Source: Gammaproteobacteria bacterium | Lineage (GTDB): Bacteria > Pseudomonadota > Gammaproteobacteria > Steroidobacterales > Steroidobacteraceae | Assembly: GCA_025350055.1 (NCBI GenBank) | Contig: JANXYK010000017.1 | Location: 1-45,653, forward strand | Direction of reading: 5' to 3' | DNA length: 45,653 nt | Part shown: positions 34,139-45,653 of the stretch, piece by piece | How the letters are laid out: each line of letters begins with the position of its first letter | Numbering within the stretch: position 1 is the stretch's first letter | The notes under the pieces: generated by a model | The model's database searches: none | The model's input: the letters and a program-made list of their open reading frames with translations, nothing else | What the model was told of the DNA's origin: nothing | Made by a program: the position numbers and the translations under genes

Positions 34139-34893
34139 TGCGGGCGCGAACTCACCTATCGTCGCCTCGTCAACCCTTATGTGCCGATGTGAGTGTTTTC
34201 CGGCGATCAGGTGGCGGCGATCCACGCTGCAGCGCTGAGGATCCTCGAGAACCAGGGCATGAAGGTGCTCCCCCCGCCGCTGGTGCTCGATGCCCCGACG
34301 GCTGATGGCATCGTCGCGTTCGCGCTCGCCGGCCAGGTGCACCGGTGGTGTATGGCAGTTTCACCTCGAACGTGGATATGAAATCCGGATCCCCCGCCTT
34401 TGGTACGCCCGAGTACGTCAAAGCGCAGTTCGGTGCCGGGCAGATGGCGCGATTCGTCGGCTTGCCGTGGCGTTGCTCCAATGCCACCGGCTCGAATATC
34501 CCGGATGCTCAGGGAGCCTATGAGTCACAGATGAGCCTGTGGGGCGCGCTGCTGGGCGGCAGCAATTTCGTGTTGCACGCGGCCGGCTGGGTCGAGCGCG
34601 GCCTGACTTCGAGCTTCGAGAAATTCATTCTCGATGTGGAGCAGCTGCAGATGCGGGCGGAAGTGTTGCAGCCGGTGCCGGGCGATGATGGCGCCGCCTC
34701 ACACGCCTATCGGCCGCTGCTGGCAGGCCAATCAACCCTGGGTGACGCTGACGCGACCGTGCGAGCCAACGGTGTGTATCGACGTGTGCTCGAGGACTAT
34801 CAGGCGCCAGTACGCGATCCAGCGGTACTCGAGGCGCTCGATGAGTATGTGCGTCGCCGTACGGAAGCGGGCGGATCACCGCCGCAGACCTGA
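34138..34893 (+). pseudogene. mttB: Degenerate mttB-family (trimethylamine/glycine betaine corrinoid methyltransferase) gene
   Basis: Remnant of a roughly 500-residue methyltransferase. An ATG at 34138 overlaps the preceding stop, but the recognisable N-terminus (RELTYRRLVNPYVPM, 34145-34189) is in the +1 frame and is stopped by TGA at 34190. The same frame resumes as VFSGDQVAAIHAAALRILE, typical of MttB proteins. After residue 50 or so about 240 codons are missing, and the frame shifts near 34340 into VVYGSFTSNVDMKSG (frame of 34345-34893), the conserved C-terminal third (FGTPEYVKAQFGAG, SQMSLWGALLGGSNFVLHAAGW, FEKFILDVEQLQM). Another stretch of about 45 residues is missing before the end VRRRTEAGG. 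Frameshifts, a stop and two deletions make it non-functional. The only available start inside the C-terminal piece would yield a fragment lacking the barrel core. Confidence 0.88.
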
Positions 34894-34941
34894 GCCTGCC
34901 AACGCCTCAGGCGGCAGCTTGCGCTCATTCCCGGGCGCGGT

Positions 34942-36333
34942 TCAGGCCTTGGGAGCGAGTGGCTTCTGCAGCAGGGGATCGTCGCCAACATCCACTCTAC
35001 TGCGTCGGTAGCGCATGGACAGCACGCCCCCGATCACGCCCAGCACCAGGAATATGACCGAGATCTGCGGGTTGAACCAGACGATGGCGACCAACGAAAC
35101 CAGCGCGATCACCAGCGCAATCACCGGAAACACGGGATAAGCGGGCGTCGCAAAGGGTCGCTCGAGCTGCGGCTCGATGCGGCGCAGTCGAAACAGGCTC
35201 GCCAGGCTCAGGACGTACATCACGATGGCGCCCAGTGCCGACATGGTCACGATGCTCGCCGTCAACGGCTGTCCCGCTATCGTCACGACCTGGTCCGAGT
35301 AGATCGCGGCAATGCCGATGGCGCCGCCGGCCAGAGTCGCAATGTACGGTGTGCGAAAACGGCGATGGATCGCGGCGAGCGCATACGGCAGGAATCCGGC
35401 GCGCGCCAGCGCAAAGATCTGGCGCGAGTAACCCATGATGATGCCGTGGAATGAGGCGATCAGGCCCAGCAGGCCGATCCAGACCAGCAGATGCAGCCAG
35501 CCGCTCTTTGCGCCGACCACGATCTTCATCGCTTGCGGCAAGGGATCATTGATGTTGGCAATGAGTCGCCAGTCACCCACGGCACCGGCAAAGATCATCG
35601 TACCGAAGGCCAGCAGCACCAGGGTCAGGATGCCGGTAATGTAGGCGCGCGGGATCGTGCGTTTCGGATCCTTGGCCTCCTCGGCCGCCATCGCCGCGCC
35701 CTCGATCGCGAGGAAAAACCAGATCGCAAAGGGTATCGCCGCGAACATGCCGCCAATGGTGGCGAGTGAGGGCGTGGCCTGCCCGCCCCAGCCGTGCGCC
35801 GTGAAGTTCGACCAGGAAAACCCGCCGGCCACGACGCCCATGAAAATCAGCAGCTCGATGATGGCGAGTACCGTGACCACGAGTTCGAAGGTGGCGGCGA
35901 TGGTGACGCCGACGATATTCAGCGCCATGAAGACGAAATAGGCGGCCACCGCGGCGTTGCGCGCCGAGAGCGCCGGAAACTGCACGTTGAGGTAAGCGCC
36001 GATGGCCAGCGCAATGGCGGGCGGTGCGAACACAAATTCGACCAGCGTGGCAAAACCGGCGAGATACCCGCCCAGTGGCCCGAAAGCGCGGTAGCTGTAG
36101 GCGAAGGGCCCGCCCGCATGCGGAATCGCGGTGGTCAGTTCCGTGTAGCTGAAGATGAAGGTGGTGTACATCAGGGCGATGAACACCGTAGTGACCAGGA
36201 ACCCCAGCGTGCCGGCCTGCGCCCAACCGTAGCTCCAGCCGAAGTATTCGCCGGAGATCACCAGGCCAACGGCAATGCCCCACAGGTGCCAGCCGCTCAA
36301 TGTGCGGGCCAGACCGGGTTGCGATTCACTCAT
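34942..36333 (-). CDS. APC-family permease, ethanolamine-permease type
   Basis: 463 residues, about 12 membrane helices. The N-terminal segment GIAVGLVISGEYFGWSYGWAQAGTLGF and the stretch IPFAIWFFLAIEGAAMAAEEAKDPKRTIPRA (read in parts) are characteristic of the ethanolamine permease group of the amino acid-polyamine-organocation superfamily. Its ATG directly follows the TAG of the amidotransferase-like gene. It is last in the operon with the glutamine-synthetase-like ligase, aldehyde and alcohol dehydrogenases. The permease type is the best clue that the operon handles ethanolamine or a similar small amino alcohol. Another amine or amino acid remains possible. Confidence 0.85.
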   Translation of the reverse strand: MSESQPGLARTLSGWHLWGIAVGLVISGEYFGWSYGWAQAGTLGFLVTTVFIALMYTTFIFSYTELTTAIPHAGGPFAYSYRAFGPLGGYLAGFATLVEFVFAPPAIALAIGAYLNVQFPALSARNAAVAAYFVFMALNIVGVTIAATFELVVTVLAIIELLIFMGVVAGGFSWSNFTAHGWGGQATPSLATIGGMFAAIPFAIWFFLAIEGAAMAAEEAKDPKRTIPRAYITGILTLVLLAFGTMIFAGAVGDWRLIANINDPLPQAMKIVVGAKSGWLHLLVWIGLLGLIASFHGIIMGYSRQIFALARAGFLPYALAAIHRRFRTPYIATLAGGAIGIAAIYSDQVVTIAGQPLTASIVTMSALGAIVMYVLSLASLFRLRRIEPQLERPFATPAYPVFPVIALVIALVSLVAIVWFNPQISVIFLVLGVIGGVLSMRYRRSRVDVGDDPLLQKPLAPKA

Positions 36334-37182
36334 CTAGCGGCACCTCGGCAGCACGTGCTGCGTCAACCAGTTGCGCAATTCCAGCAGACGCAGGCTGGCG
36401 TCACTCATCGCAGCGCCCAGCCCGTGCTTCCACAGCAGCGGCGCGTTGGACGGTTGGGCCTGGAGCTGGCGCAGCTCTGTGGAGAAAACCTTCAGCGCCT
36501 TCAGATCCTGGAACAGACCCTCGTCGACCAGGGTCTGGCCATAGCGCTCGGCGGCCGCAGCAATGTCGAGAAAGTCGTACTCGGGGTGATATTGCACGCC
36601 CCAGAAAGTGCCGCGTCGATGCGTGAACACGGCCGCCTGCAGCCCCATGTCGTTGCTGGCCAGCAGCGTTGCACCGACGGGGAGCGCGCCAATCTCATCC
36701 CGATGAATGGTCGGAGCCTCGTACACCGCTGGCTTGCCGGCGAACAGCGGATGCGCACGGCCCGCCTCGTTGAGCTGGATCCGGCGCGCGAAACCGAATT
36801 CGCGGCCGCGTGGATTCTTCTGCACCTGCCCACCGGCTGCGACCACTGCAATCTGCAGGCCCCAGCAGCTGCCGAAGAATGGCAAGCCTGCCTCGAACAC
36901 AGCCTTGGCAATCTCGACCTGCCGCTCCACCGGACCGCCGCCGTGGTACACGTTCAAGGCAGAGCCCGTGATGGTGACTCCGTCGAAGTCCGTCAGGTTG
37001 ACGCCTGTGGGCAGCGCTGGCGCCGCATCGGCGGGACGAATGATCTCGCACTGAAGTTCCGGCATCAGCCGCTTCAGTACCTGCGCATACCCGGTGCCTG
37101 AGTCGTAACCCAGTGCGGCTCGCTGTCGGTCGCGTATCTGCGCCACATTGCCGTCGACGACCAGGATGCGAGGCGCCGCCAC
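36334..37182 (-). CDS. Class I glutamine-amidotransferase-like protein, candidate gamma-glutamyl hydrolase
   Basis: 282 residues with one class I GATase domain. Nucleophile Cys in FFGSCWGLQIAV (about residue 105), His and Glu of the triad in WGVQYHPEYDF (about 195). Stand-alone members near gamma-glutamyl ligases (PuuD in putrescine use, IpuF in isopropylamine use) hydrolyse the gamma-glutamyl amide. No synthetase domain is fused or adjacent, which favours a hydrolase over an ammonia donor. Start GTG 37182 lies three bases from the alcohol dehydrogenase stop, with a weak ribosome site. Proposed reaction here: gamma-glutamylglycine (or a similar product) to glutamate plus glycine. Family certain, substrate inferred. 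Confidence 0.84.
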   Translation of the reverse strand: MAAPRILVVDGNVAQIRDRQRAALGYDSGTGYAQVLKRLMPELQCEIIRPADAAPALPTGVNLTDFDGVTITGSALNVYHGGGPVERQVEIAKAVFEAGLPFFGSCWGLQIAVVAAGGQVQKNPRGREFGFARRIQLNEAGRAHPLFAGKPAVYEAPTIHRDEIGALPVGATLLASNDMGLQAAVFTHRRGTFWGVQYHPEYDFLDIAAAAERYGQTLVDEGLFQDLKALKVFSTELRQLQAQPSNAPLLWKHGLGAAMSDASLRLLELRNWLTQHVLPRCR

Positions 37183-37185
37183 GGT

Positions 37186-38352
37186 TCAGGCCTGCACGGC
37201 GAGTTGACCCACGACGGCCGCACGGAAAATGCGTTCCAGATCGGCCGCGCTCACCGGGATCGGATTGCCCGACGCGGAAGGATCGATCGCAGCCTCGGCG
37301 CCTATGATCGCAGCCTTGTCGATGCTCACGCCGATCTCGGCCAGCGTGTGCGCAATACCCAGCTCGCGCCGCAGCCCCAGCACCCAGGCATACAAGCCAT
37401 CGTAACCGCGCTCTGGCAGATCGAGCACGCGGGCGACGACATCACATTTGGCGCCAATCGCGGTGCGGTTGAACTCCATCACGTAGGGCAGCACGATGGC
37501 ATTGGTGAGCCCGTGATGCGTGTTGAAAAAGGATCCGACCGGATGAGCGATCGCGTGTACGCCACCGAGCCCCTTCTGGAACGCCGTGGCGCCCATCGAT
37601 GCGGCCGCCAGCATATGCGCGCGCGCTTCGATATCGGCGCCGTTGGCGCAGGCGCGCGGCAGGTAGGTCGCAATCAGGCGCATGCCTTCCAGCGCCACGC
37701 CGTCGGCGAGCGGGTGGAAGCCTGGCGCGCAGTAGGCCTCGAAGCAATGCACGAAGGCATCCATGCCGGTCGCGGCGGTCACCCAGCGTGGCAAGCCGAC
37801 CGTGAGCTCGGGATCCGAGATCACGATCTTCGGCATCATCAGCGGATGAAAAATGATCTTCTTCTGGTGCGTGGTCTCATTGAGTATCACGCCAGCACGC
37901 CCCACTTCCGAGCCGGTGCCCGCGGTCGTGGGTATCGCCACCACGGGCGCAATGCCGGCGGGATCAGCGCGCGTCCACCAGTCGCCCACATCCTCGAAAT
38001 CCCACAGTGGACGCGTTTGACCCGACATGAAGGCGACAACCTTGCCAGTATCGAGCGCGGCGCCGCCACCGAGCGCGACCACTCCATCGTGTTGGCCAGC
38101 GCGATAGGCAGCGAGCCCGGCTTCGACATGGGCGGCGGTGGGATTGCCCTGCACGCCCCCGAATACTGCAGCACCATTCAGCGATGCCGCGGCAGCGCGC
38201 ACCATAGGGCTTGCCAGCAGGCCCTGATCGGTAACGATCAAGGGCTTGCTGATGCCCGCTCGTTGGCAAGCCGCCGGCAGCTCGGCTACACGCCCGGGCC
38301 CGGCCCAGATCGTGGTCGGATAGTTCCAGTTACCCTTGATGACGACTGTCAT
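37186..38352 (-). CDS. Iron-containing (group III) alcohol dehydrogenase
   Basis: 388 residues from ATG 38352, which overlaps the aldehyde dehydrogenase TGA by four bases. NAD site GGGAALDTGKVVAFM, metal-ligand region GMDAFVHCFEAY and the histidine cluster HAIAHPVGSFFNTHHG are all present, so the enzyme should be active. Group III dehydrogenases oxidise diverse primary alcohols. Between a gamma-glutamyl ligase and an aldehyde dehydrogenase, the natural substrate would be a gamma-glutamylated amino alcohol such as gamma-glutamylethanolamide. This gene is what separates the operon from a putrescine (Puu) pathway, which uses the oxidase PuuB at this point. Confidence 0.9.
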   Translation of the reverse strand: MTVVIKGNWNYPTTIWAGPGRVAELPAACQRAGISKPLIVTDQGLLASPMVRAAAASLNGAAVFGGVQGNPTAAHVEAGLAAYRAGQHDGVVALGGGAALDTGKVVAFMSGQTRPLWDFEDVGDWWTRADPAGIAPVVAIPTTAGTGSEVGRAGVILNETTHQKKIIFHPLMMPKIVISDPELTVGLPRWVTAATGMDAFVHCFEAYCAPGFHPLADGVALEGMRLIATYLPRACANGADIEARAHMLAAASMGATAFQKGLGGVHAIAHPVGSFFNTHHGLTNAIVLPYVMEFNRTAIGAKCDVVARVLDLPERGYDGLYAWVLGLRRELGIAHTLAEIGVSIDKAAIIGAEAAIDPSASGNPIPVSAADLERIFRAAVVGQLAVQA

Positions 38353-39740
38353 AGCTTGACCCTGAAATGATAGGACTTCGGTCGTGTCAGTTGTTCGTAG
38401 CCCACGCGCGAGAGCGTGCAACCACGTCCGGAATTCTTGACCCCGGTCCAGGCCAGCGCCGGGTCCAGGTAATCGCAGCGGTTCAGGAACACCGTGCCGG
38501 TCTCGAGCTGATCGCCCAGCGACTCAGCCAACGTGGCGTCGGCCGAAAAAATGGCCGCCGTCAGGCCGTAGTCGCTGTCGTTCATCAGCCGGATCGCTTC
38601 CGCATCGGAATTCACTTTCATGATGCCGACCACCGGGCCGAAACTTTCCTCGCGCATCACGGGCATCGAGTGATCGACATCGACGAGCACCTGTGGCGCA
38701 AGGTACGGACTGCCAGGCCGGCTGGCCGCGAAACGGCGCTCATCAATCAACTGTCGCGCGCCACGTTTTACGGCATCGCTCACCTGGTTGCGCAGGAAGT
38801 CGGCCGCCGAGGTGCGCACTACCGGACCCAGCGTGGTTTCTGCATCGAGCGGCGAGCCCAGCTGGTAGCGATGGGTCAGCTCGACCACACCGTCGACGAA
38901 CTGCTGGTACACGGGCGCCGCCACATAGATGCGCTTGATACCGCAGCAGGATTGCCCGGCATTGAAAAACGCGCCATCGGTGAGCGAGTCGATCGCGTGC
39001 GGCAGATCGGCATCAGCACGCACGTAGGCGGGATCCTTGCCGCCCAGCTCCAGGCCCGCGGTCGCGAAGCCCTTGCCAGTGGCAGCGACCACCGCATGAC
39101 CACCGGCGACCGAGCCCGTGAAGCAGACGCTGGCGACGCGCTGGTCGGCCATCAGTTGCGTGGTGTCGGCGTGCGAGAGGCACAAGTGTTGATAGACATG
39201 CGCCGGTACACCCGCCGCCGCCAGCGCTTCGCCGAAGCGTTCCGCGCACAATGGCGTCTGGTGCGAGTGCTTGAGCACCACCGCGTTGCCGGCAATCAGT
39301 GCCGGCCACACCGCGTTGACGGCGGTCAGATAGGGAAAATTCCAGGGCGCCACGACGGCCACCACGCCGACTGGCACGCGCTTGATCTGCCGCGCGAATC
39401 CGGCCTTCTCGCCCGGATCAACAGGCGCCAGTGCATTGCCCGCAATCGAGAGCATGTAACGCGCGCGCTCCTCGAAGCCGCGCACTTCACCAGGGGCATG
39501 TCGCACGGGGCGACCCATCTGCCAGCTGATCTCTGGCGCAATCTCGGCGGCACGGGCCACAAAGGCGTCGGTGGCCTTGCTCAGCAGAGCGACGCGCTCG
39601 GCCAGCGGCCGCCGAGCCCAGTCGCACTGGGCAGCGCTGGCGCGATCGAGCGCACGGCTGATCGCCGCCGCATCGTCCAAAGGCCGCTCGACATAGATGC
39701 GGCCGTCGACCGGGCTCGTGGTCTGTTGAATTGCCGACAT
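38349..39740 (-). CDS. NAD(P)-dependent aldehyde dehydrogenase
   Basis: 463 residues, full length for the superfamily. Active-site Cys in FFNAGQSCCGIKRIYV (two adjacent cysteines), general base Glu in GLELGGKDPAYV, cofactor region APWNFPYLTAVNAVWPAL and CFTGSVAGG. The start ATG 39740 has GAGGA upstream, overlapping the stop region of the glutamine-synthetase-like gene. It would oxidise the aldehyde made by the iron alcohol dehydrogenase, for example gamma-glutamyl-aminoacetaldehyde to gamma-glutamylglycine. Alternative substrates are gamma-glutamyl-aminobutyraldehyde or a free aldehyde. Confidence 0.9.
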   Translation of the reverse strand: MSAIQQTTSPVDGRIYVERPLDDAAAISRALDRASAAQCDWARRPLAERVALLSKATDAFVARAAEIAPEISWQMGRPVRHAPGEVRGFEERARYMLSIAGNALAPVDPGEKAGFARQIKRVPVGVVAVVAPWNFPYLTAVNAVWPALIAGNAVVLKHSHQTPLCAERFGEALAAAGVPAHVYQHLCLSHADTTQLMADQRVASVCFTGSVAGGHAVVAATGKGFATAGLELGGKDPAYVRADADLPHAIDSLTDGAFFNAGQSCCGIKRIYVAAPVYQQFVDGVVELTHRYQLGSPLDAETTLGPVVRTSAADFLRNQVSDAVKRGARQLIDERRFAASRPGSPYLAPQVLVDVDHSMPVMREESFGPVVGIMKVNSDAEAIRLMNDSDYGLTAAIFSADATLAESLGDQLETGTVFLNRCDYLDPALAWTGVKNSGRGCTLSRVGYEQLTRPKSYHFRVKL

Positions 39741-39749
39741 GGATCCTCG

Positions 39750-41117
39750 TCAGATGATTTCGAAGTAGCGGGACAGTTCCCAGTCGGTGATCGCCTTGCG
39801 AAACTCGCGCTCTTCCCATTGGCGCGTGGCCACGTGGTGCTCGACGAATTCCGCGCCAAATAGCTCGCGGGCCGCGCTCGAGGCAGCGAGGCGTTGCGCC
39901 GCCTCATGGAGCGAGCCCGGCAGACGTCGCTCGGCTGCATGCTCGAGCGCATAGGCATTGGCGGCGATCGGTGCATCCGGTTCGATGCGATGCTCGATGC
40001 CCCAGAGACCGGAACCGATGGACGCGGCCAGCGCGAGATAGGGATTGATGTCGGCGGCAGCGATGCGATATTCCACCCGCTGGCTGTGTGGCCCGCCGCG
40101 GATCACGCGCAGGGCCGTGGTGCGATTCTCCACGCCCCAGGTCGCGGAGGTCGGCGCCCAGTAGCCGGGGATCAGCCGCGAGTAGCTGTTCACGGTGCAG
40201 GCAACCATCGACAGCAGTTCGGGCATCAGCGCCTGCTGGCCGCCGACGAACCAGCGCATCGCATCCGACATGTCGTGCGGCTTCGAGGGATCGTGGAACA
40301 CGCTGCCACCGCCCTGCTTCTGCAGCGACATGTGCAGGTGTCCGCTCTGCCCTGGATATTTGTTGGACCACTTGGCCATGAAGGTGGCCATCAGGCCATG
40401 GCGCTGCGCCAGCACCTTGGTGAAGGTCTTGAAGAGCGCGGCACGATCAGCGGCCTCGAGGGCCTCGCAATGACAGAGCGCCGCCTCGAGCACGCCGGGG
40501 CCCGTTTCGGTGTGCAGCCCTTCGATCGGGAAACGCATCGCCTGTGAGAGATCGAGCAGCTCCTGGTACAGCCCCGAGTGCACGGTATTGCGCAGCACCG
40601 AATAGCCGAAGAATCCGGGCGTCATCGGCTGCAGATCCTGGTAGTGCTTGGCGCGTACGGAATCCGGGGTTTCAGAAAAGACAAAGAACTCGAATTCCGC
40701 GGCCGCGCTCACGCTGTAACCCATGCTGGCAGCGCGCGCCAGCACGCGGCGCAAGGTGGCCCGCGGGCATACCGCCTCGGCGCGTCCGGCGAACTCGCAC
40801 AGGAATAGCGCAGTCTTGGGTTCGAAGGGAATGTCGCGCTGGGTCTCGGGCAACACCCGTATCGGCGCATCCGGAAAAGCCGTGTGCCAACCCGTGAACT
40901 TCAGGTTGTCGATCAGCTGGTCATTGGAATCCCAGCCCAGCACCACGTCGCAGAAGGCCAGGCCCTTGTCGAGCGCCGAGAGGAACTTGTCGCGATGGAT
41001 GTACTTGCCGCGCAGGATGGCATCGCCATCGAACACCCCGACCTTGACGTGCTCGATGCCGCGCTCGTTCAGCATGGCGGCGATCGCGGCCTTCTGTTCG
41101 TTGTTCGCTGTTGCCAT
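39750..41117 (-). CDS. Glutamine-synthetase-like gamma-glutamyl-amine ligase
   Basis: 455 residues with the glutamine synthetase fold: N-terminal beta-grasp (about 20-110) and catalytic domain with EFEFFVF, ETGPGVLEAAL, SGHLHMSLQ, ENRTTALRVI and RVEYRIAAADINPYLAL. It lacks the adenylylation-site region of GlnA and resembles PuuA/IpuC/GlnA4-like enzymes, which join glutamate to a primary amine with ATP. The ATG at 41117 has a strong AAGGAG and follows the sulfotransferase stop by nine bases, so it is co-transcribed with it. With the downstream alcohol and aldehyde dehydrogenases, hydrolase and ethanolamine-type permease, it probably forms gamma-glutamylethanolamide or a related amide. The amine substrate is inference. 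Confidence 0.88.
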   Translation of the reverse strand: MATANNEQKAAIAAMLNERGIEHVKVGVFDGDAILRGKYIHRDKFLSALDKGLAFCDVVLGWDSNDQLIDNLKFTGWHTAFPDAPIRVLPETQRDIPFEPKTALFLCEFAGRAEAVCPRATLRRVLARAASMGYSVSAAAEFEFFVFSETPDSVRAKHYQDLQPMTPGFFGYSVLRNTVHSGLYQELLDLSQAMRFPIEGLHTETGPGVLEAALCHCEALEAADRAALFKTFTKVLAQRHGLMATFMAKWSNKYPGQSGHLHMSLQKQGGGSVFHDPSKPHDMSDAMRWFVGGQQALMPELLSMVACTVNSYSRLIPGYWAPTSATWGVENRTTALRVIRGGPHSQRVEYRIAAADINPYLALAASIGSGLWGIEHRIEPDAPIAANAYALEHAAERRLPGSLHEAAQRLAASSAARELFGAEFVEHHVATRQWEEREFRKAITDWELSRYFEII

Positions 41118-41126
41118 GGCGCTCCT

Positions 41127-43310
41127 TTATACAGGATAGCCCCGCAGCACGTCGCCGAGCGCCGCCTGCAGGGGTTGCAAATGTCGTTCGTAGTGCCGCC
41201 AGCGGCCCGCGGAACTGGTATGGATCTTCTGCCGCACCTGCCATTTGCTGGCGGTGATCACCGAGCGCTCGGTCTGATGGAAGTCCAGTACCTTGGGATC
41301 CCACGGCAGGCCGATGAAATCGAGCATCCGGCGGCTCCAGCCTTCCTGATCGGCGATGAGCGATTCGTAAGGCACTTCCAGCAAGCTCGTCGCTGGCAAC
41401 AGGCCGCGCCAGTGCGCCATCACACGCTGATACTGGCCGTAGTAGTGCGCCAGGCTGTCGAGGTCGTTGGCATAAGGGCCCATGCCGAAGAAATTCTGGA
41501 AGTAGATCGACAGGCAGGTGTCGAGCGGATGGCGCTGCATGTGGATGATGCGCAGCTTCGGGAACAAGCCGTAGATAAAACCCGCGTACAGAAAATTGGC
41601 CGGCATCTTGTCGATGACGCGCAGCACGCCGGCGCGCGGCGGCTTGAGGCGCTCGAGGTAAGCTGCACTCATGCGCTGCTGTCGCGCGGCGTCGGCGGAT
41701 CCCTCCTCCTGCAGTGCCTGCAGCCACTTGTTCCAGGCGCCATCCCAGAAGGTCACCTCGCCAGCGCCGAAAACCGCCGGGTGCGAGGCCAGTATTTGCT
41801 CGCTCAACGAGGTGCCCGAGCGCGGCATGCCCATGACCAGCACGGGTAGCTGTGAATCCGAACCCTGCTCGCTGAGCTGCTGAATGAAGGCGGCGTCGAT
41901 CGTCCTGATGATGCCATCCACACGCTGCGTGAAATTCGCGCGCTCATAGCTGGCGCCATAGCGCTTGCTGAGTTCATTGGCCTGGCGGTAGTTCGCGAAG
42001 GCCTCGTCATACTGGCGCAGGTCATCGAAATACTTGCCCAGCGCGTAGCGCAGGCTGATTTCATGGGCCAGCGGCGGCTGGCGCGCCAGCAGCGCCTGCG
42101 CGCCTTCGAGCCAGCCACTGTCCTCGGCCTTCATCTTCCGGTGCGTGGCAATGCTGATATACGCAAACGAAAAATCGGGATTGATTTCCAGCGTGCGCCG
42201 GAAGAGTTCCTCGGCTTCGGCGAACTGGCCGCGATCGGCGCGCAATTCTCCCATGAACGAGAGTGCCTCGACATAGTTCGGGTCGATGGCCAGTGCCGCC
42301 TGGCAACTCGCCTCCGCTTCGGCCGGGCGACGTTGCTGGCGCGAGGCCATCGCCAGCCCAAGGTGGGCTGGCGCATAGTCCAGTTTTAGCTTGATCGCCT
42401 CGGCGTAGCAGGCCCTGGCCTCCTGGAAGCGGCGTAACTCGAACAGCACCGAGCCCAGGTTCCAGTGATGCTCGGCACGTTTGGGATCGAGCCGCATGGC
42501 TTCGGAATACAGCGGTACAGCCTCGCGGCGCTGTCCGACTTCGCGCAGCGTATTGCCAAGGTTGGTCAGCGCTTCGATATAGTTCGGGGCCAGTGCCAAG
42601 GCCTGGCGGTAGCTGGCGATCGCCTGCTCGTGCTGACGTGCCGCCGCCAGCATCAAACCCAGGGTGTTGTGCGCGATGGCAAGCCGTGGATCGAGTGCCA
42701 GCGCGCGCCTGGTGAGCGCCATGGCTTCATCCAGGTGCCCCTGCCCGCGTTCAGCCACACCGAGGTTGCACAGCACCTGTGCGTCGTCTGGCCGCAAACG
42801 CAGTGCCTCGCGGTACGCGGCGGCGGCTTCGGTGAAACGCTCCAGGCTGCGCCAGGCGTTGCCCAGATTGTTGTGCGCCTCGGCCGATGCAGGGTCGATC
42901 TGCATGGCGCGCTGGTATTGCGGCACGGAATCCGCGGCACGCCCCGCCGCGCGCAAGGCATCGGCGTACTCGAGCAGTGCATCGACATCGTCGGGCTTGA
43001 GTTCCAGCGCACGCTTGAAGCTTGCCAGCGCCGGCTCCCATTGCTGCTGGTCTTGCAGTGCGGTGGCCAGATTCCGCTGCGCCTCGGCATCCTCGGGCAG
43101 CAGCTCGACGGTCTTGCGCAACTCCGTCAGTGCATTCTTGTTCTGGCGCATCATCGCCACGCCCAACACTTTCCACAGCATGCCGGCCGTGGGATAGGCG
43201 CGCAGCAGCGTGCGTGCGCTGCGCTCGGCTTCTCCCAGGCGCTCCTGGTCGATCAGCTTGACCAGCGCGCTGATGTCGAAAGTGCTCAGGCCCCCGGTGC
43301 TAGTGACCAC
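41127..43310 (-). CDS. TPR-repeat sulfotransferase (second of a tandem pair)
   Basis: 727 residues from GTG 43310, which overlaps the stop of the upstream paralogue by 11 bases; a TTG at 43334 is the other option. Residues about 70-395 hold roughly nine tetratricopeptide repeats (AEAHNNLGNAWRSLERFTEA, AIAHNTLGLMLAAARQHEQA). The C-terminal 240 residues are a PAPS-dependent sulfotransferase: 5'-phosphosulfate loop GMPRSGTSLSEQIL (about 494-507) and 3'-phosphate motif HMQRHPLDTCLSIYFQNF (about 590-607). It would transfer sulfate to an unknown acceptor in the cytoplasm. Its stop codon overlaps the ribosome site of the gamma-glutamyl ligase gene (TAAAGGAG), an unexpected link to amine catabolism. 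Confidence 0.9.
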   Translation of the reverse strand: MVTSTGGLSTFDISALVKLIDQERLGEAERSARTLLRAYPTAGMLWKVLGVAMMRQNKNALTELRKTVELLPEDAEAQRNLATALQDQQQWEPALASFKRALELKPDDVDALLEYADALRAAGRAADSVPQYQRAMQIDPASAEAHNNLGNAWRSLERFTEAAAAYREALRLRPDDAQVLCNLGVAERGQGHLDEAMALTRRALALDPRLAIAHNTLGLMLAAARQHEQAIASYRQALALAPNYIEALTNLGNTLREVGQRREAVPLYSEAMRLDPKRAEHHWNLGSVLFELRRFQEARACYAEAIKLKLDYAPAHLGLAMASRQQRRPAEAEASCQAALAIDPNYVEALSFMGELRADRGQFAEAEELFRRTLEINPDFSFAYISIATHRKMKAEDSGWLEGAQALLARQPPLAHEISLRYALGKYFDDLRQYDEAFANYRQANELSKRYGASYERANFTQRVDGIIRTIDAAFIQQLSEQGSDSQLPVLVMGMPRSGTSLSEQILASHPAVFGAGEVTFWDGAWNKWLQALQEEGSADAARQQRMSAAYLERLKPPRAGVLRVIDKMPANFLYAGFIYGLFPKLRIIHMQRHPLDTCLSIYFQNFFGMGPYANDLDSLAHYYGQYQRVMAHWRGLLPATSLLEVPYESLIADQEGWSRRMLDFIGLPWDPKVLDFHQTERSVITASKWQVRQKIHTSSAGRWRHYERHLQPLQAALGDVLRGYPV

Positions 43311-45324
43311 GATAGTTTTCCAGCGCGTCGCCAAGTGCGAGCTTGAGCGGCTCCAGCCAGGGTTCGAAGTGCTTCCATTGATCTAGCCCTTCGCGATAGA
43401 TGGGCTGGCGCACCTGCTCGGAGCTGGCCGTGCGCACGCTGCGCACGGTCTTGTGGAAATCGACGCATTGCGGTTCGAAGTCCAGCGCGCAGAAATCGAG
43501 GATGCGCCTGACGCTCCCCTGCAGGTCGTCGACCACATCTTCATGCTGCACCCGCAGGATCCAGCCGGGCAGCACGGCATCCCAGTGACGCATCAGCTCG
43601 AGGTAGGTGCGGTAGTAACGGGCGATATCCTCGAAGCTGTAGCTGAATTCCTGGCCCTTGGCAAAGAGCTGCTTCAGGTTGCTGAAACAGCAGGCCAGCG
43701 GTTCGCGGCGCGCATCGATGATCTTCGCATTCGGCAGCATCAGCCTGATCAGGCCGAGGTGGCGGAAATTGTTCGGCATCTTGTCGATGAAGTACGGCAC
43801 GGGATCGGGCTTGCCCATGCGATAGGGTCGCGTGTCGCGCAGGTATTGCTCGCCCAGCTGCCGGAATTCATCGGCGTTCATTTCCGGCAGGATGCGCGGA
43901 TAGCGCGGATTGCTCAGGTCCGGATCGCGCCCGCGCAGGTTGGCCACCAGCTGCTGCACGTTGGGCAGCTCCTGCGTGCCTTCCACCTGCGAGTGCGAGG
44001 CCAGGATCTGTTCGATCAGCGTTGAGCCGGAACGCGGCAGGCCGACGATGAAGATCGGATCGCGCTCGCTCGTGCCGAAGCCCGCGCGGCTGGCGAAGAA
44101 CTGCGCCGTGCACACCTCGATCTGCTGGCGGGTGTTGTTCTCGATGATCTCCGGGCGATAGTTGCTGTGCGCACGCCGCAGGGTGTTGCCCAGCTCGTAG
44201 TAATGAAAGGATTCTGCATATTGCTGCCGGTCTTCCAGCGCCTTGGCGAGCGCGAAATGCAGATGATAGCGATCGGCCACGACGAGATCCGGCGCCGACT
44301 GCAGCGCCTGCAGGCGCGAGAACTCCTGGTCCGTGAAGCGGTAAGTCTTCAGGTTGGCGAGACTCCAGTAGGCATCGCCAAAGCCATGGCGACTGGCCTC
44401 GGCCTGCCGATAGGCGGCGATGGCCTCATCGCGCCGACCCAGCGTCTTGAGCGCATGCGCCACCGAGAGGTGCAGGTCGGCATCCTGCGGCGTGAGCTTG
44501 ATCAGTTGCTGGTAGACCTCGACCGCCCTGGCATGTTCGCCCAGGCCCACCAGCGCCGTGGCACGCAGTCCTTCATAGCGCAGCTTGCCCTCGGGATCTT
44601 CCTGCTCCAGCTGATCGAGCTCGCGCAGCGCCTGGTTGCACTTGTGCATCTCGATCAGCACTTCCGCGTACTCGGCGCGTGCTGCCTTGTAGTCGGGCGC
44701 GACCTCCAGCACTGCGGCCAGCAGCAGTTCGGCGTCGTCGAACACCTTGCGCGTCATGCCGATGCGCGCCAGCAAACGCATTGCCTCCAGATCGTGCCCG
44801 TGTTGCTGCAGGAAGCCGCGCACCATGGCTTCGGCCTCATCCAGATCGCCATCCATGAAGAGGCCGGTGGCCAGCACGACTTCGCGCGGCAGTTTCTTCA
44901 GGGTCGCTACCTGGTTGGCGGCCGTCGCGGCTTCCTCGGCCCTACCCACCATCCGGCACAAACCCTCGAGCATGGACCAGCTCGCCGGCAGGGCATGATT
45001 CAAATGCACGGCCTGCAGAAAGGCCTCTATGGCCTGCGGCGCCTGCTTCTGGGCCACGTAGCAATGGCCCAGCTCCTCGTGCAAGCGGCTGTAGCGCGGG
45101 TGCCCCGCTGCCAGCCTGGCGAGCGTCTGCTGCGCCTCGCTCACCTGCCCGAGGAAGCGCTGGGCGATGGCGGTAAACAGCAAGGCGTCGCGTTGCCCGG
45201 GGTCGCCTGCCAGCACTGCTGCAGACGCAGCCTGCGCCGCCGCGAACTCGCGTTGCCGCAGCAGCGCGCGTATCTGCGCAAGTTGCGCGGCCGCGGTTGC
45301 AGGCAAGGTGGTGCGCTCGTCCAT
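43300..45324 (-). CDS. TPR-repeat sulfotransferase (first of a tandem pair)
   Basis: 674 residues. TPR-like helices from about 10 to 380 (less regular than in its neighbour), then a sulfotransferase domain: VGLPRSGSTLIEQILASHSQVEG (PRSGST at 430-435; read in parts), FIDKMPNNFRHLGLI and IIDARREPLACCFSNLKQLF (about 535-553). The architecture equals that of the following gene, so the pair likely arose by an old duplication; the sequences have diverged widely. The ATG at 45324 sits ten bases beyond the T-tract of the TonB receptor terminator, leaving almost no leader. Neighbouring TonB receptor and sulfotransferase genes suggest a cell-surface or secreted-molecule role, but the acceptor is unknown. 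Confidence 0.9.
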   Translation of the reverse strand: MDERTTLPATAAAQLAQIRALLRQREFAAAQAASAAVLAGDPGQRDALLFTAIAQRFLGQVSEAQQTLARLAAGHPRYSRLHEELGHCYVAQKQAPQAIEAFLQAVHLNHALPASWSMLEGLCRMVGRAEEAATAANQVATLKKLPREVVLATGLFMDGDLDEAEAMVRGFLQQHGHDLEAMRLLARIGMTRKVFDDAELLLAAVLEVAPDYKAARAEYAEVLIEMHKCNQALRELDQLEQEDPEGKLRYEGLRATALVGLGEHARAVEVYQQLIKLTPQDADLHLSVAHALKTLGRRDEAIAAYRQAEASRHGFGDAYWSLANLKTYRFTDQEFSRLQALQSAPDLVVADRYHLHFALAKALEDRQQYAESFHYYELGNTLRRAHSNYRPEIIENNTRQQIEVCTAQFFASRAGFGTSERDPIFIVGLPRSGSTLIEQILASHSQVEGTQELPNVQQLVANLRGRDPDLSNPRYPRILPEMNADEFRQLGEQYLRDTRPYRMGKPDPVPYFIDKMPNNFRHLGLIRLMLPNAKIIDARREPLACCFSNLKQLFAKGQEFSYSFEDIARYYRTYLELMRHWDAVLPGWILRVQHEDVVDDLQGSVRRILDFCALDFEPQCVDFHKTVRSVRTASSEQVRQPIYREGLDQWKHFEPWLEPLKLALGDALENYRGH

Positions 45325-45335
45325 CAGCTTCCCAT

Positions 45336-45364
45336 AAAAAAAAGGCGGACTACTGGAGTCCGCC
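45336..45364 (-). terminator. Rho-independent terminator of the TonB-dependent receptor gene
   Basis: On the minus strand an 8-base-pair GC-rich stem (45364-45357 with 45351-45344, GGCGGACT/AGTCCGCC), a five-base loop and eight T residues (45343-45336) form a textbook intrinsic terminator, 56 bases after the receptor stop codon. It ends ten bases before the next gene's ATG. Confidence 0.9.
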
Positions 45365-45420
45365 CTTGATTCTACTGCAGCCAGCCTGAGCCAGCGGCCA
45401 TAGGCTTTACACGCTCGGCA

Positions 45421-45653
45421 TCAGAACTTCAGGCCAAACCCGAAGGTGATCACGCGCGGCCGCAGCGGCACCACACTCTTGATGAACTGACCCGAGGTCG
45501 TGTTGGTGCTGGCATCGTTGTTGGTCAGGTTGTTGATGGTCACCTGGGCGGTCCAGTTGTCGCGCGACACGCCGAACCCTGCGTCCACCGTTGTATACGA
45601 GGGCATCGTGTACTTCAGCAGCGTGGTGGTGGGCGGGTTGTAGGCCGGATCGT
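45421..45653 (-). CDS. TonB-dependent receptor, C-terminal end only
   Basis: 77 residues are in the window; the 5' part lies beyond the right edge. The sequence ends YTTVDAGFGVSRDNWTAQVTINNLTN... RPRVITFGFGLKF with a terminal Phe, the standard closing strands of an outer-membrane beta-barrel receptor (NNLTN motif and final aromatic residue for BAM recognition). The ligand cannot be told from this part. It is followed by the terminator at 45336-45364. Confidence 0.85.
   Translation of the reverse strand, partial: DPAYNPPTTTLLKYTMPSYTTVDAGFGVSRDNWTAQVTINNLTNNDASTNTTSGQFIKSVVPLRPRVITFGFGLKF

What the first reader, a model, noticed from the sequence alone, without database searches (positions are those of the whole stretch)
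34942..41117. A gamma-glutamylation route for an amino alcohol, probably ethanolamine to glycine
Seen: a glutamine-synthetase-like ligase, aldehyde dehydrogenase, iron alcohol dehydrogenase, class I GATase-like hydrolase and ethanolamine-type permease, in one tightly coupled operon. Known: PuuA/PuuD and IpuC/IpuF use gamma-glutamyl protection of amines, and a GlnA4-based ethanolamine route has been proposed in Streptomyces. Here an alcohol dehydrogenase replaces the amine oxidase PuuB, which fits an amino alcohol rather than a diamine. Inferred sequence: ethanolamine, gamma-glutamylethanolamide, gamma-glutamyl-aminoacetaldehyde, gamma-glutamylglycine, then glutamate plus glycine. This would be a coenzyme-B12-free alternative to ethanolamine ammonia-lyase encoded as a complete operon.
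Basis: partly seen in the sequence, partly recalled or inferred. Interest (0 to 1): 0.78.

Follow-up and report, generated by a model that had tools for sequence, protein, structure and literature searches.

The report
Glutamate-tagging ethanolamine-to-glycine operon
Five back-to-back genes very probably let this bacterium take up ethanolamine, tag it with glutamate, oxidise it to glycine and remove the tag without vitamin B12; the route itself is already published, but this copy uses a different starting enzyme.

Summary
In detail: ligase, aldehyde dehydrogenase, iron alcohol dehydrogenase, class I GATase and permease lie in tandem at 41117-34942 (minus strand). The reading ethanolamine -> gamma-glutamylethanolamide -> gamma-glutamylglycine -> glycine is well supported. 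The permease passes the NCBIfam ethanolamine-permease cut-off; EutB and EutC were not found in the genome; ALDH and ADH are 53-55% identical to those of Ruegeria/Sinorhizobium operons. In 5 of 80 related loci the same kind of ligase operon sits beside EtoX, the TRAP binding protein whose Chromohalobacter homologue was crystallised with ethanolamine. The surroundings are glycine-forming too. But the pathway is not new: it is described for C. salexigens, A. tumefaciens, Phaeobacter and, first step, Streptomyces GlnA4. What differs is the ligase, from a separate lineage (29-34% identical to Eto-type ligases), and the hydrolase, a GATase instead of an N-formylglutamate amidohydrolase; near the ligase the two hydrolase types were never found together in those 80 loci. 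So this is a mosaic variant of a known pathway. No enzyme of this ligase lineage has been assayed as far as my searches show; 15 of 55 loci lack ADH or ALDH near the ligase, and neighbouring amino alcohols remain possible substrates.

The parts
39750..41117 (-). GS-like ligase, proposed gamma-glutamylethanolamide synthetase (455 aa), first gene of the operon
   Evidence: PF00120 E 1.2e-96; no equivalog cut-off passed; clade separate from the Eto/5dm3-type ligases
38349..39740 (-). aldehyde dehydrogenase, proposed gamma-glutamyl-aminoacetaldehyde dehydrogenase (463 aa)
   Evidence: PF00171; 55% identical to the ALDH of the Ruegeria and S. meliloti operons
37186..38352 (-). iron-containing alcohol dehydrogenase, proposed gamma-glutamylethanolamide dehydrogenase (388 aa from the ATG at 38352; the longest frame starts TTG 38421)
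   Evidence: PF00465, PF25137; 53-54% identical to the ADH of the Ruegeria and S. meliloti operons; no other match in the own genome at E 0.001; tree
36334..37182 (-). class I GATase-like hydrolase, proposed gamma-glutamylglycine amidohydrolase (282 aa)
   Evidence: PF00117; GSCWG and HPE motifs; alternates with the N-formylglutamate amidohydrolase of the other operon type
34942..36333 (-). APC-family ethanolamine permease (463 aa)
   Evidence: TIGR00908 585.7 bits, cut-off 381.75

Best explanation
The operon is a catabolic ethanolamine route. The permease imports ethanolamine. The GS-like ligase joins it with ATP to the gamma-carboxyl of glutamate. The iron alcohol dehydrogenase oxidises the now N-blocked alcohol to the aldehyde, the ALDH oxidises that to gamma-glutamylglycine, and the class I GATase-like enzyme cuts it to glutamate plus glycine. 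Glutamate is a recycled protecting group. Glycine enters the glycine/serine/C1 metabolism encoded next door. Shown here: gene content, order, homology, conservation and neighbourhood. Inferred: every reaction and the substrate.
For: Permease over the TIGR00908 cut-off; the same family over cut-off in L041 and Photobacterium L058. Permease, ligase, ALDH, ADH and a class I GATase stand together in Photobacterium sp. GJ3 and in 10 of 80 related loci. EtoX (60% identity or more) lies beside window-type ligase operons in 5 of 80 loci: Thalassospira L085 and L087, Desulfopila L102, MAGs L103 and L109, needing at least 4 gains or losses on the ligase tree. The L085 EtoX matches 4uab/4xf5 at E 4.8e-164, next best E 3.7e-15; 4UAB is Csal_0678 crystallised with ethanolamine (PMC12410723, passages). 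ADH and ALDH are 53-55% identical to those of Ruegeria B32 and S. meliloti; the Ruegeria gene order (RpiR, amidohydrolase, TRAP small, TRAP large, binding protein, ligase, ALDH, iron ADH) runs parallel to that of the ethanolamine operon induced in Phaeobacter (PMC10132767, passages). The 8 Eto-type ADHs nest among window-type ADHs. EutB/EutC not found. Neighbours form glycine: SoxBAG, DMGDH-like, Tdh, Kbl; SdaA consumes serine; SHMT present. The three other GS-like genes of the genome have no such ADH or ALDH in the stretches fetched around them.
Against: No activity data for this ligase lineage. The ligase is only 29-34% identical to the Eto-type ligases; its nearest function-named relative among the 40 listed rows is IpuC at 40%, for a different amine. 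In 15 of 55 loci ADH or ALDH was not found near the ligase, in eight of them neither. Two ligases at 55% identity sit with polyamine-type ABC genes and no ADH, so the wider family has other substrates. The GATases are not one close group: the Photobacterium one gave no hit to the window GATase at 1e-6, though both are PF00117. The ADH nesting has moderate support (88; parent node 47). EutB was not found in any of 40 relatives, with or without the operon, so its absence is weak evidence.
Confidence: 0.82

Rival explanations
1. Same chemistry on another small amino alcohol (alaninol, 3-aminopropanol, serinol or a related compound), giving alanine, beta-alanine or serine instead of glycine; a secondary alcohol such as isopropanolamine would not fit the ALDH step.
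For: The nearest function-named ligase in the listed rows is IpuC (40%). ALDH and ADH pass none of the equivalog cut-offs shown. Ligase specificity cannot be read from sequence alone.
Against: EtoX beside the same operon type in five loci, ethanolamine-permease equivalog match, glycine-centred surroundings.
Confidence: 0.12
2. A PuuA/IpuC-like route for a diamine or alkylamine, with the ADH serving an unrelated reaction.
For: GS-like ligase plus ALDH plus GATase is also the PuuA/PuuC/PuuD plan (recalled). Two ligases at 55% identity sit with polyamine-type ABC genes. In 8 of 55 loci the ligase has neither ADH nor ALDH nearby.
Against: No amine oxidase among the five genes; the ADH start overlaps the ALDH stop; ADH lies near the ligase in 43 of 55 loci; gamma-glutamylputrescine synthetase score 203 of the 650 needed.
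Confidence: 0.04
3. Detoxification or nitrogen storage of ethanolamine as gamma-glutamylethanolamide rather than full conversion to glycine.
For: A gamma-glutamylpolyamine synthetase helps Streptomyces survive toxic polyamine levels (PMC8998196, start of abstract in the listing).
Against: Complete oxidation and hydrolysis genes and an importer are in the same operon.
Confidence: 0.02

Closest known systems
Ethanolamine operon of Phaeobacter sp. MED193 (RpiR, GGAH, EtoVWX, ETAGA, GAADDH, GETADH), said there to be closely related to genes shown to work in Chromohalobacter salexigens and Agrobacterium tumefaciens C58 (PMC10132767, passages; the paper cited there for those was not read)
   Same: Proposed reaction sequence; ligase-ALDH-ADH order; ALDH and ADH 53-55% identical to the copy in Ruegeria B32, used as proxy
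   Different: Ligase from a separate clade (29-34% identical); class I GATase instead of N-formylglutamate amidohydrolase; APC permease instead of the TRAP transporter
Streptomyces GlnA4 cluster SCO1610-SCO1615 (PMC6529630, passages)
   Same: GS-like gamma-glutamylethanolamide synthetase (activity shown), ALDH, putative ethanolamine permease in some species; the figure legend also names a glutamine amidotransferase
   Different: A short-chain dehydrogenase where the window has an iron alcohol dehydrogenase; the GlnA4 sequence itself was not compared here
IpuC, Paenarthrobacter aurescens TC1
   Same: GS-like amine-glutamate ligase, 40% identical
   Different: Isopropylamine substrate by annotation; P450/ferredoxin neighbours, no match to the window ADH in the stretch fetched
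PuuABCD putrescine pathway (recalled)
   Same: Glutamate as protecting group, ALDH, GATase-type hydrolase
   Different: Amine oxidase PuuB in place of the alcohol dehydrogenase; ligase fails the gamma-glutamylputrescine synthetase cut-off
EutBC ethanolamine ammonia-lyase
   Same: Same substrate
   Different: Different chemistry, B12-dependent, acetaldehyde product; genes not found

Membership tests
Gamma-glutamyl ethanolamine catabolic pathway (C. salexigens/Phaeobacter kind) | GS-like ligase, ALDH, alcohol dehydrogenase and gamma-glutamyl hydrolase encoded together | tested here: met
   (the hydrolase role of the GATase is inferred)
Gamma-glutamyl ethanolamine catabolic pathway (C. salexigens/Phaeobacter kind) | ALDH and ADH of the same kind as those of the known operons | tested here: met
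   53-55% identity; ADHs of both operon types in one clade against three PDB outgroup rows
Gamma-glutamyl ethanolamine catabolic pathway (C. salexigens/Phaeobacter kind) | Ligase orthologous to the Eto-type ligase | tested here: not met
   29-34% identity, separate clades; hence called a variant, not a copy
Gamma-glutamyl ethanolamine catabolic pathway (C. salexigens/Phaeobacter kind) | Hydrolase of the N-formylglutamate amidohydrolase family | tested here: not met
   Class I GATase instead. Near window-type ligases GATase in 26 and N-formylglutamate amidohydrolase in 12 of 80 loci, both in 0; without the distance limit both occur in one, L097
Gamma-glutamyl ethanolamine catabolic pathway (C. 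salexigens/Phaeobacter kind) | Ethanolamine-specific transporter | tested here: met
   TIGR00908 over cut-off; by family model only, transport not tested
Gamma-glutamyl ethanolamine catabolic pathway (C. salexigens/Phaeobacter kind) | Ligase makes gamma-glutamylethanolamide | not testable with these tools
   needs an enzyme assay
PuuA/Puu pathway | Ligase over the gamma-glutamylputrescine synthetase cut-off | tested here: not met
   203.3 of 650 bits
EutBC pathway | EutB and EutC present | tested here: not met
   assembly 96.3% complete

The most novel reading that the evidence does not exclude
A second, independently derived lineage of gamma-glutamylethanolamide synthetase, not orthologous to the Csal/Eto-type ligase, shares one ADH/ALDH core with it. 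Hydrolase (GATase or N-formylglutamate amidohydrolase) and transporter (TRAP EtoVWX or APC permeases) are swapped freely around this core, making B12-free ethanolamine use far more widespread in Proteobacteria than the described operons suggest.
Probability: 0.65. Interest if true: 0.42.

Novelty: new variant of a known kind. Interest (0 to 1): 0.33.

Why it matters
Ethanolamine from membrane lipids is a large nitrogen and carbon source, and the well-known marker for its use is eutBC. This ligase passes no curated family cut-off and relatives are annotated simply as glutamine synthetase. If its activity is confirmed, many Alpha- and Gammaproteobacteria can be assigned B12-free ethanolamine-to-glycine conversion, and the ADH/ALDH pair (rather than ligase or transporter) would be the better marker of the route.

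Tried and rejected
Considered and rejected: canonical GlnA or PuuA identity of the ligase (below cut-offs); EutBC in the same genome. Complementary distribution of EutB against the operon could not be tested: EutB was found in 0 of 40 relatives. The promoter scan of 34800-45653 gave no sigma-70-like site, uninformative. The two genes upstream of the ligase are TPR proteins, not regulators; I made no wider search for a regulator.

Limits of the counts. 25 of 80 loci lacked 3 kb upstream or 4.5 kb downstream and are left out of the 55. Presence was scored by tblastn within about 6.5 kb with identity limits that I set after seeing (ALDH and ADH 45%, GATase 35%, N-formylglutamate amidohydrolase 30%, ethanolamine-type permease 35%, S. 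meliloti-type permease 45%, EtoX 60%). Without the distance limit one locus, L097, has both hydrolase types. Three loci (L112, L132, L138) are called GATase only through the Photobacterium GATase. The chance of no overlap, 0.006-0.007, ignores kinship; on the ligase tree hydrolase type needs at least 4 changes (hydrolase labels written by hand). The ADH tree used 61 window-type rows (window included, hits of 330 aa or more near the ligase), 8 Eto-type rows and one Shinella row; in the unrooted trees each operon type is one side of a branch, the nesting shows only with the PDB outgroup. Trees are quick searches without bootstrap; the ligase tree warns of long branches, IpuC among them. The MED193 and GlnA4 sequences were not fetched; Ruegeria B32 served as proxy for the first, and that its last gene, an iron ADH, corresponds to GETADH rests on position. 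That 5dm3 is the C. salexigens ligase is recalled, not from a call; in the tree 5dm3 groups with the Ruegeria Eto ligase.
Full report
OBSERVATION. Distances between them are 9 nt, a 4-nt overlap, 3 nt and 0 nt. The permease is an equivalog-level ethanolamine permease (585.7 bits, cut-off 381.75). The ligase passes neither the GlnA nor the gamma-glutamylputrescine synthetase cut-off, and the best models for ALDH, ADH and GATase are all below their cut-offs.

WHAT IT IS. In the literature held here the route is already described. In Phaeobacter sp. MED193, growth on phosphorylethanolamine induces proteins annotated as ethanolamine gamma-glutamylase, gamma-glutamylethanolamide dehydrogenase, gamma-glutamylacetylaldehydeamide dehydrogenase, gamma-glutamylglycine amidohydrolase and an ethanolamine TRAP binding protein (EtoX, Kd 7.9 uM), from a single operon; the authors say its genes are closely related to those shown to work in C. 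salexigens and A. tumefaciens C58 (PMC10132767, passages). In Streptomyces coelicolor, GlnA4 was shown to make gamma-glutamylethanolamide and to be needed for growth on ethanolamine, with the later steps proposed (PMC6529630, passages; review PMC9397018, passages).

COMPARISON WITH THE KNOWN OPERON. The Ruegeria B32 plasmid carries the same gene order as MED193; S. meliloti has an amino acid permease in place of the TRAP genes. Against these two, the window ALDH is 55% and the ADH 53-54% identical, but the ligase only 30-34%, and their hydrolase is PF05013, N-formylglutamate amidohydrolase, not a GATase. A ligase tree of 101 rows puts the Eto-type ligases with PDB 5dm3 and 11zs (6 rows, support 100) apart from an 86-row window-type clade (support 94). 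An ADH tree rooted on three PDB dehydrogenases puts the 8 Eto-type ADHs inside an 18-row clade with 10 window-type ADHs (support 88; parent node 47), within 70 ADHs that are together against the outgroup (support 100). So the redox core is shared while the ligase and the hydrolase differ.

CONSERVATION. Of 40 genomes (own included), 12 have the ligase at 70% or more; other matches are at 37% or less. The stretches fetched for the 11 relatives show ligase-ALDH-ADH-GATase in L041, L043, L044, L046 and L049, with the TIGR00908 permease over cut-off in L041 (583.5 bits) and a permease just below it in L049 (356.5); L047 and L048 show ligase-ALDH-ADH without a GATase hit; L040, L042, L045 and L012 are cut by contig ends. 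Legionella lytica carries ligase-ALDH-ADH-GATase on a plasmid, Photobacterium sp. GJ3 all five kinds of gene, its GATase too distant to be hit by the window's. Of the 55 loci with enough flank, 40 have ALDH and ADH, 18 a GATase, 11 the N-formylglutamate amidohydrolase, none both, and 25 a transporter of one of three families; over all 80 the numbers are 53, 26, 12, 0 and 30. One locus, L097, has a GATase in the operon and an N-formylglutamate amidohydrolase gene outside the distance limit. The alternation suggests that the GATase does the job of the known gamma-glutamylglycine amidohydrolase; it is not proof.

LINK TO ETHANOLAMINE. In Thalassospira (L085, L087), Desulfopila (L102) and two MAGs (L103, L109) a window-type ligase operon lies beside EtoX and EtoW genes (most 68-80% identical to Ruegeria; one EtoW piece 63%), which needs at least 4 gains or losses on the ligase tree. 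The L085 binding protein matches 4uab/4xf5 with 549 bits, the next solved structure with 59; 4UAB is Csal_0678 with bound ethanolamine (PMC12410723, passages). EutB and EutC were not found in the own genome; EutB was found in 0 of 40 relatives too, so absence alone says little.

SURROUNDINGS. The contig is a glycine-forming catabolic island: carnitine dehydrogenase (572.6 bits, just under the cut-off of 592) and a beta-keto acid cleavage enzyme, Kbl and Tdh (threonine to glycine), serine ammonia-lyase, SoxB-SoxA-SoxG (SoxB over its cut-off, SoxA 1157.7 of 1164, SoxG below), a dimethylglycine dehydrogenase-like enzyme, and a glycerophosphodiesterase-family gene that could help release ethanolamine or choline. 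SHMT is present elsewhere. Glycine as end product fits; this is circumstantial.

AGAINST. No assay of an enzyme of this ligase lineage turned up in searches, which cover open-licence papers only. 15 of 55 loci lack ADH or ALDH near the ligase, eight lack both. Two ligases at 55% identity sit with polyamine-type ABC genes. A neighbouring amino alcohol cannot be excluded.

VERDICT. The reading is probably right. The pathway is known; this is a mosaic variant with a distinct ligase lineage and another hydrolase. A glutamine amidotransferase is also named in the Streptomyces cluster legend, so the hydrolase swap alone is not new.

Noticed in passing
window 34345-34893 (+): An open frame matching only profile positions 293-426 of 500 of trimethylamine methyltransferase (MttB, PF06253), probably a truncated remnant, between the dimethylglycine dehydrogenase gene and the operon.
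   Followed up: no
window 5913-34138: Carnitine, threonine, sarcosine and dimethylglycine breakdown genes converging on glycine, plus a serine ammonia-lyase, on one contig.
   Followed up: partly
window 41127-45324 (-): Two adjacent TPR-repeat proteins directly upstream of the ligase; the first carries a C-terminal sulfotransferase domain. The second is 34% identical to it over 382 aa.
   Followed up: no
G000 (own genome): Four glutamine-synthetase-like genes were found; none passes the type I GlnA cut-off (three were scored on the matched part of the frame only). The usual GlnA may lie in a missing part of this 96% complete assembly.
   Followed up: partly
L145 9983-13308, L146 9999-13086: Beta-hydroxyaspartate-cycle genes (bhc) lie beside the Eto-type ethanolamine operon in Aminobacter aminovorans and Paracoccus pantotrophus, suggesting that its glycine is fed into that cycle.
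   Followed up: no
L036, L060: Ligases 55% identical to the window's lie with an aminotransferase, spermidine/putrescine-type ABC genes and a dimethylformamidase-like gene in Pseudorhizobium flavum and Rhodobacteraceae M382 (the latter also with an N-formylglutamate amidohydrolase and an ALDH): probably a gamma-glutamylation route for another amine.
   Followed up: no
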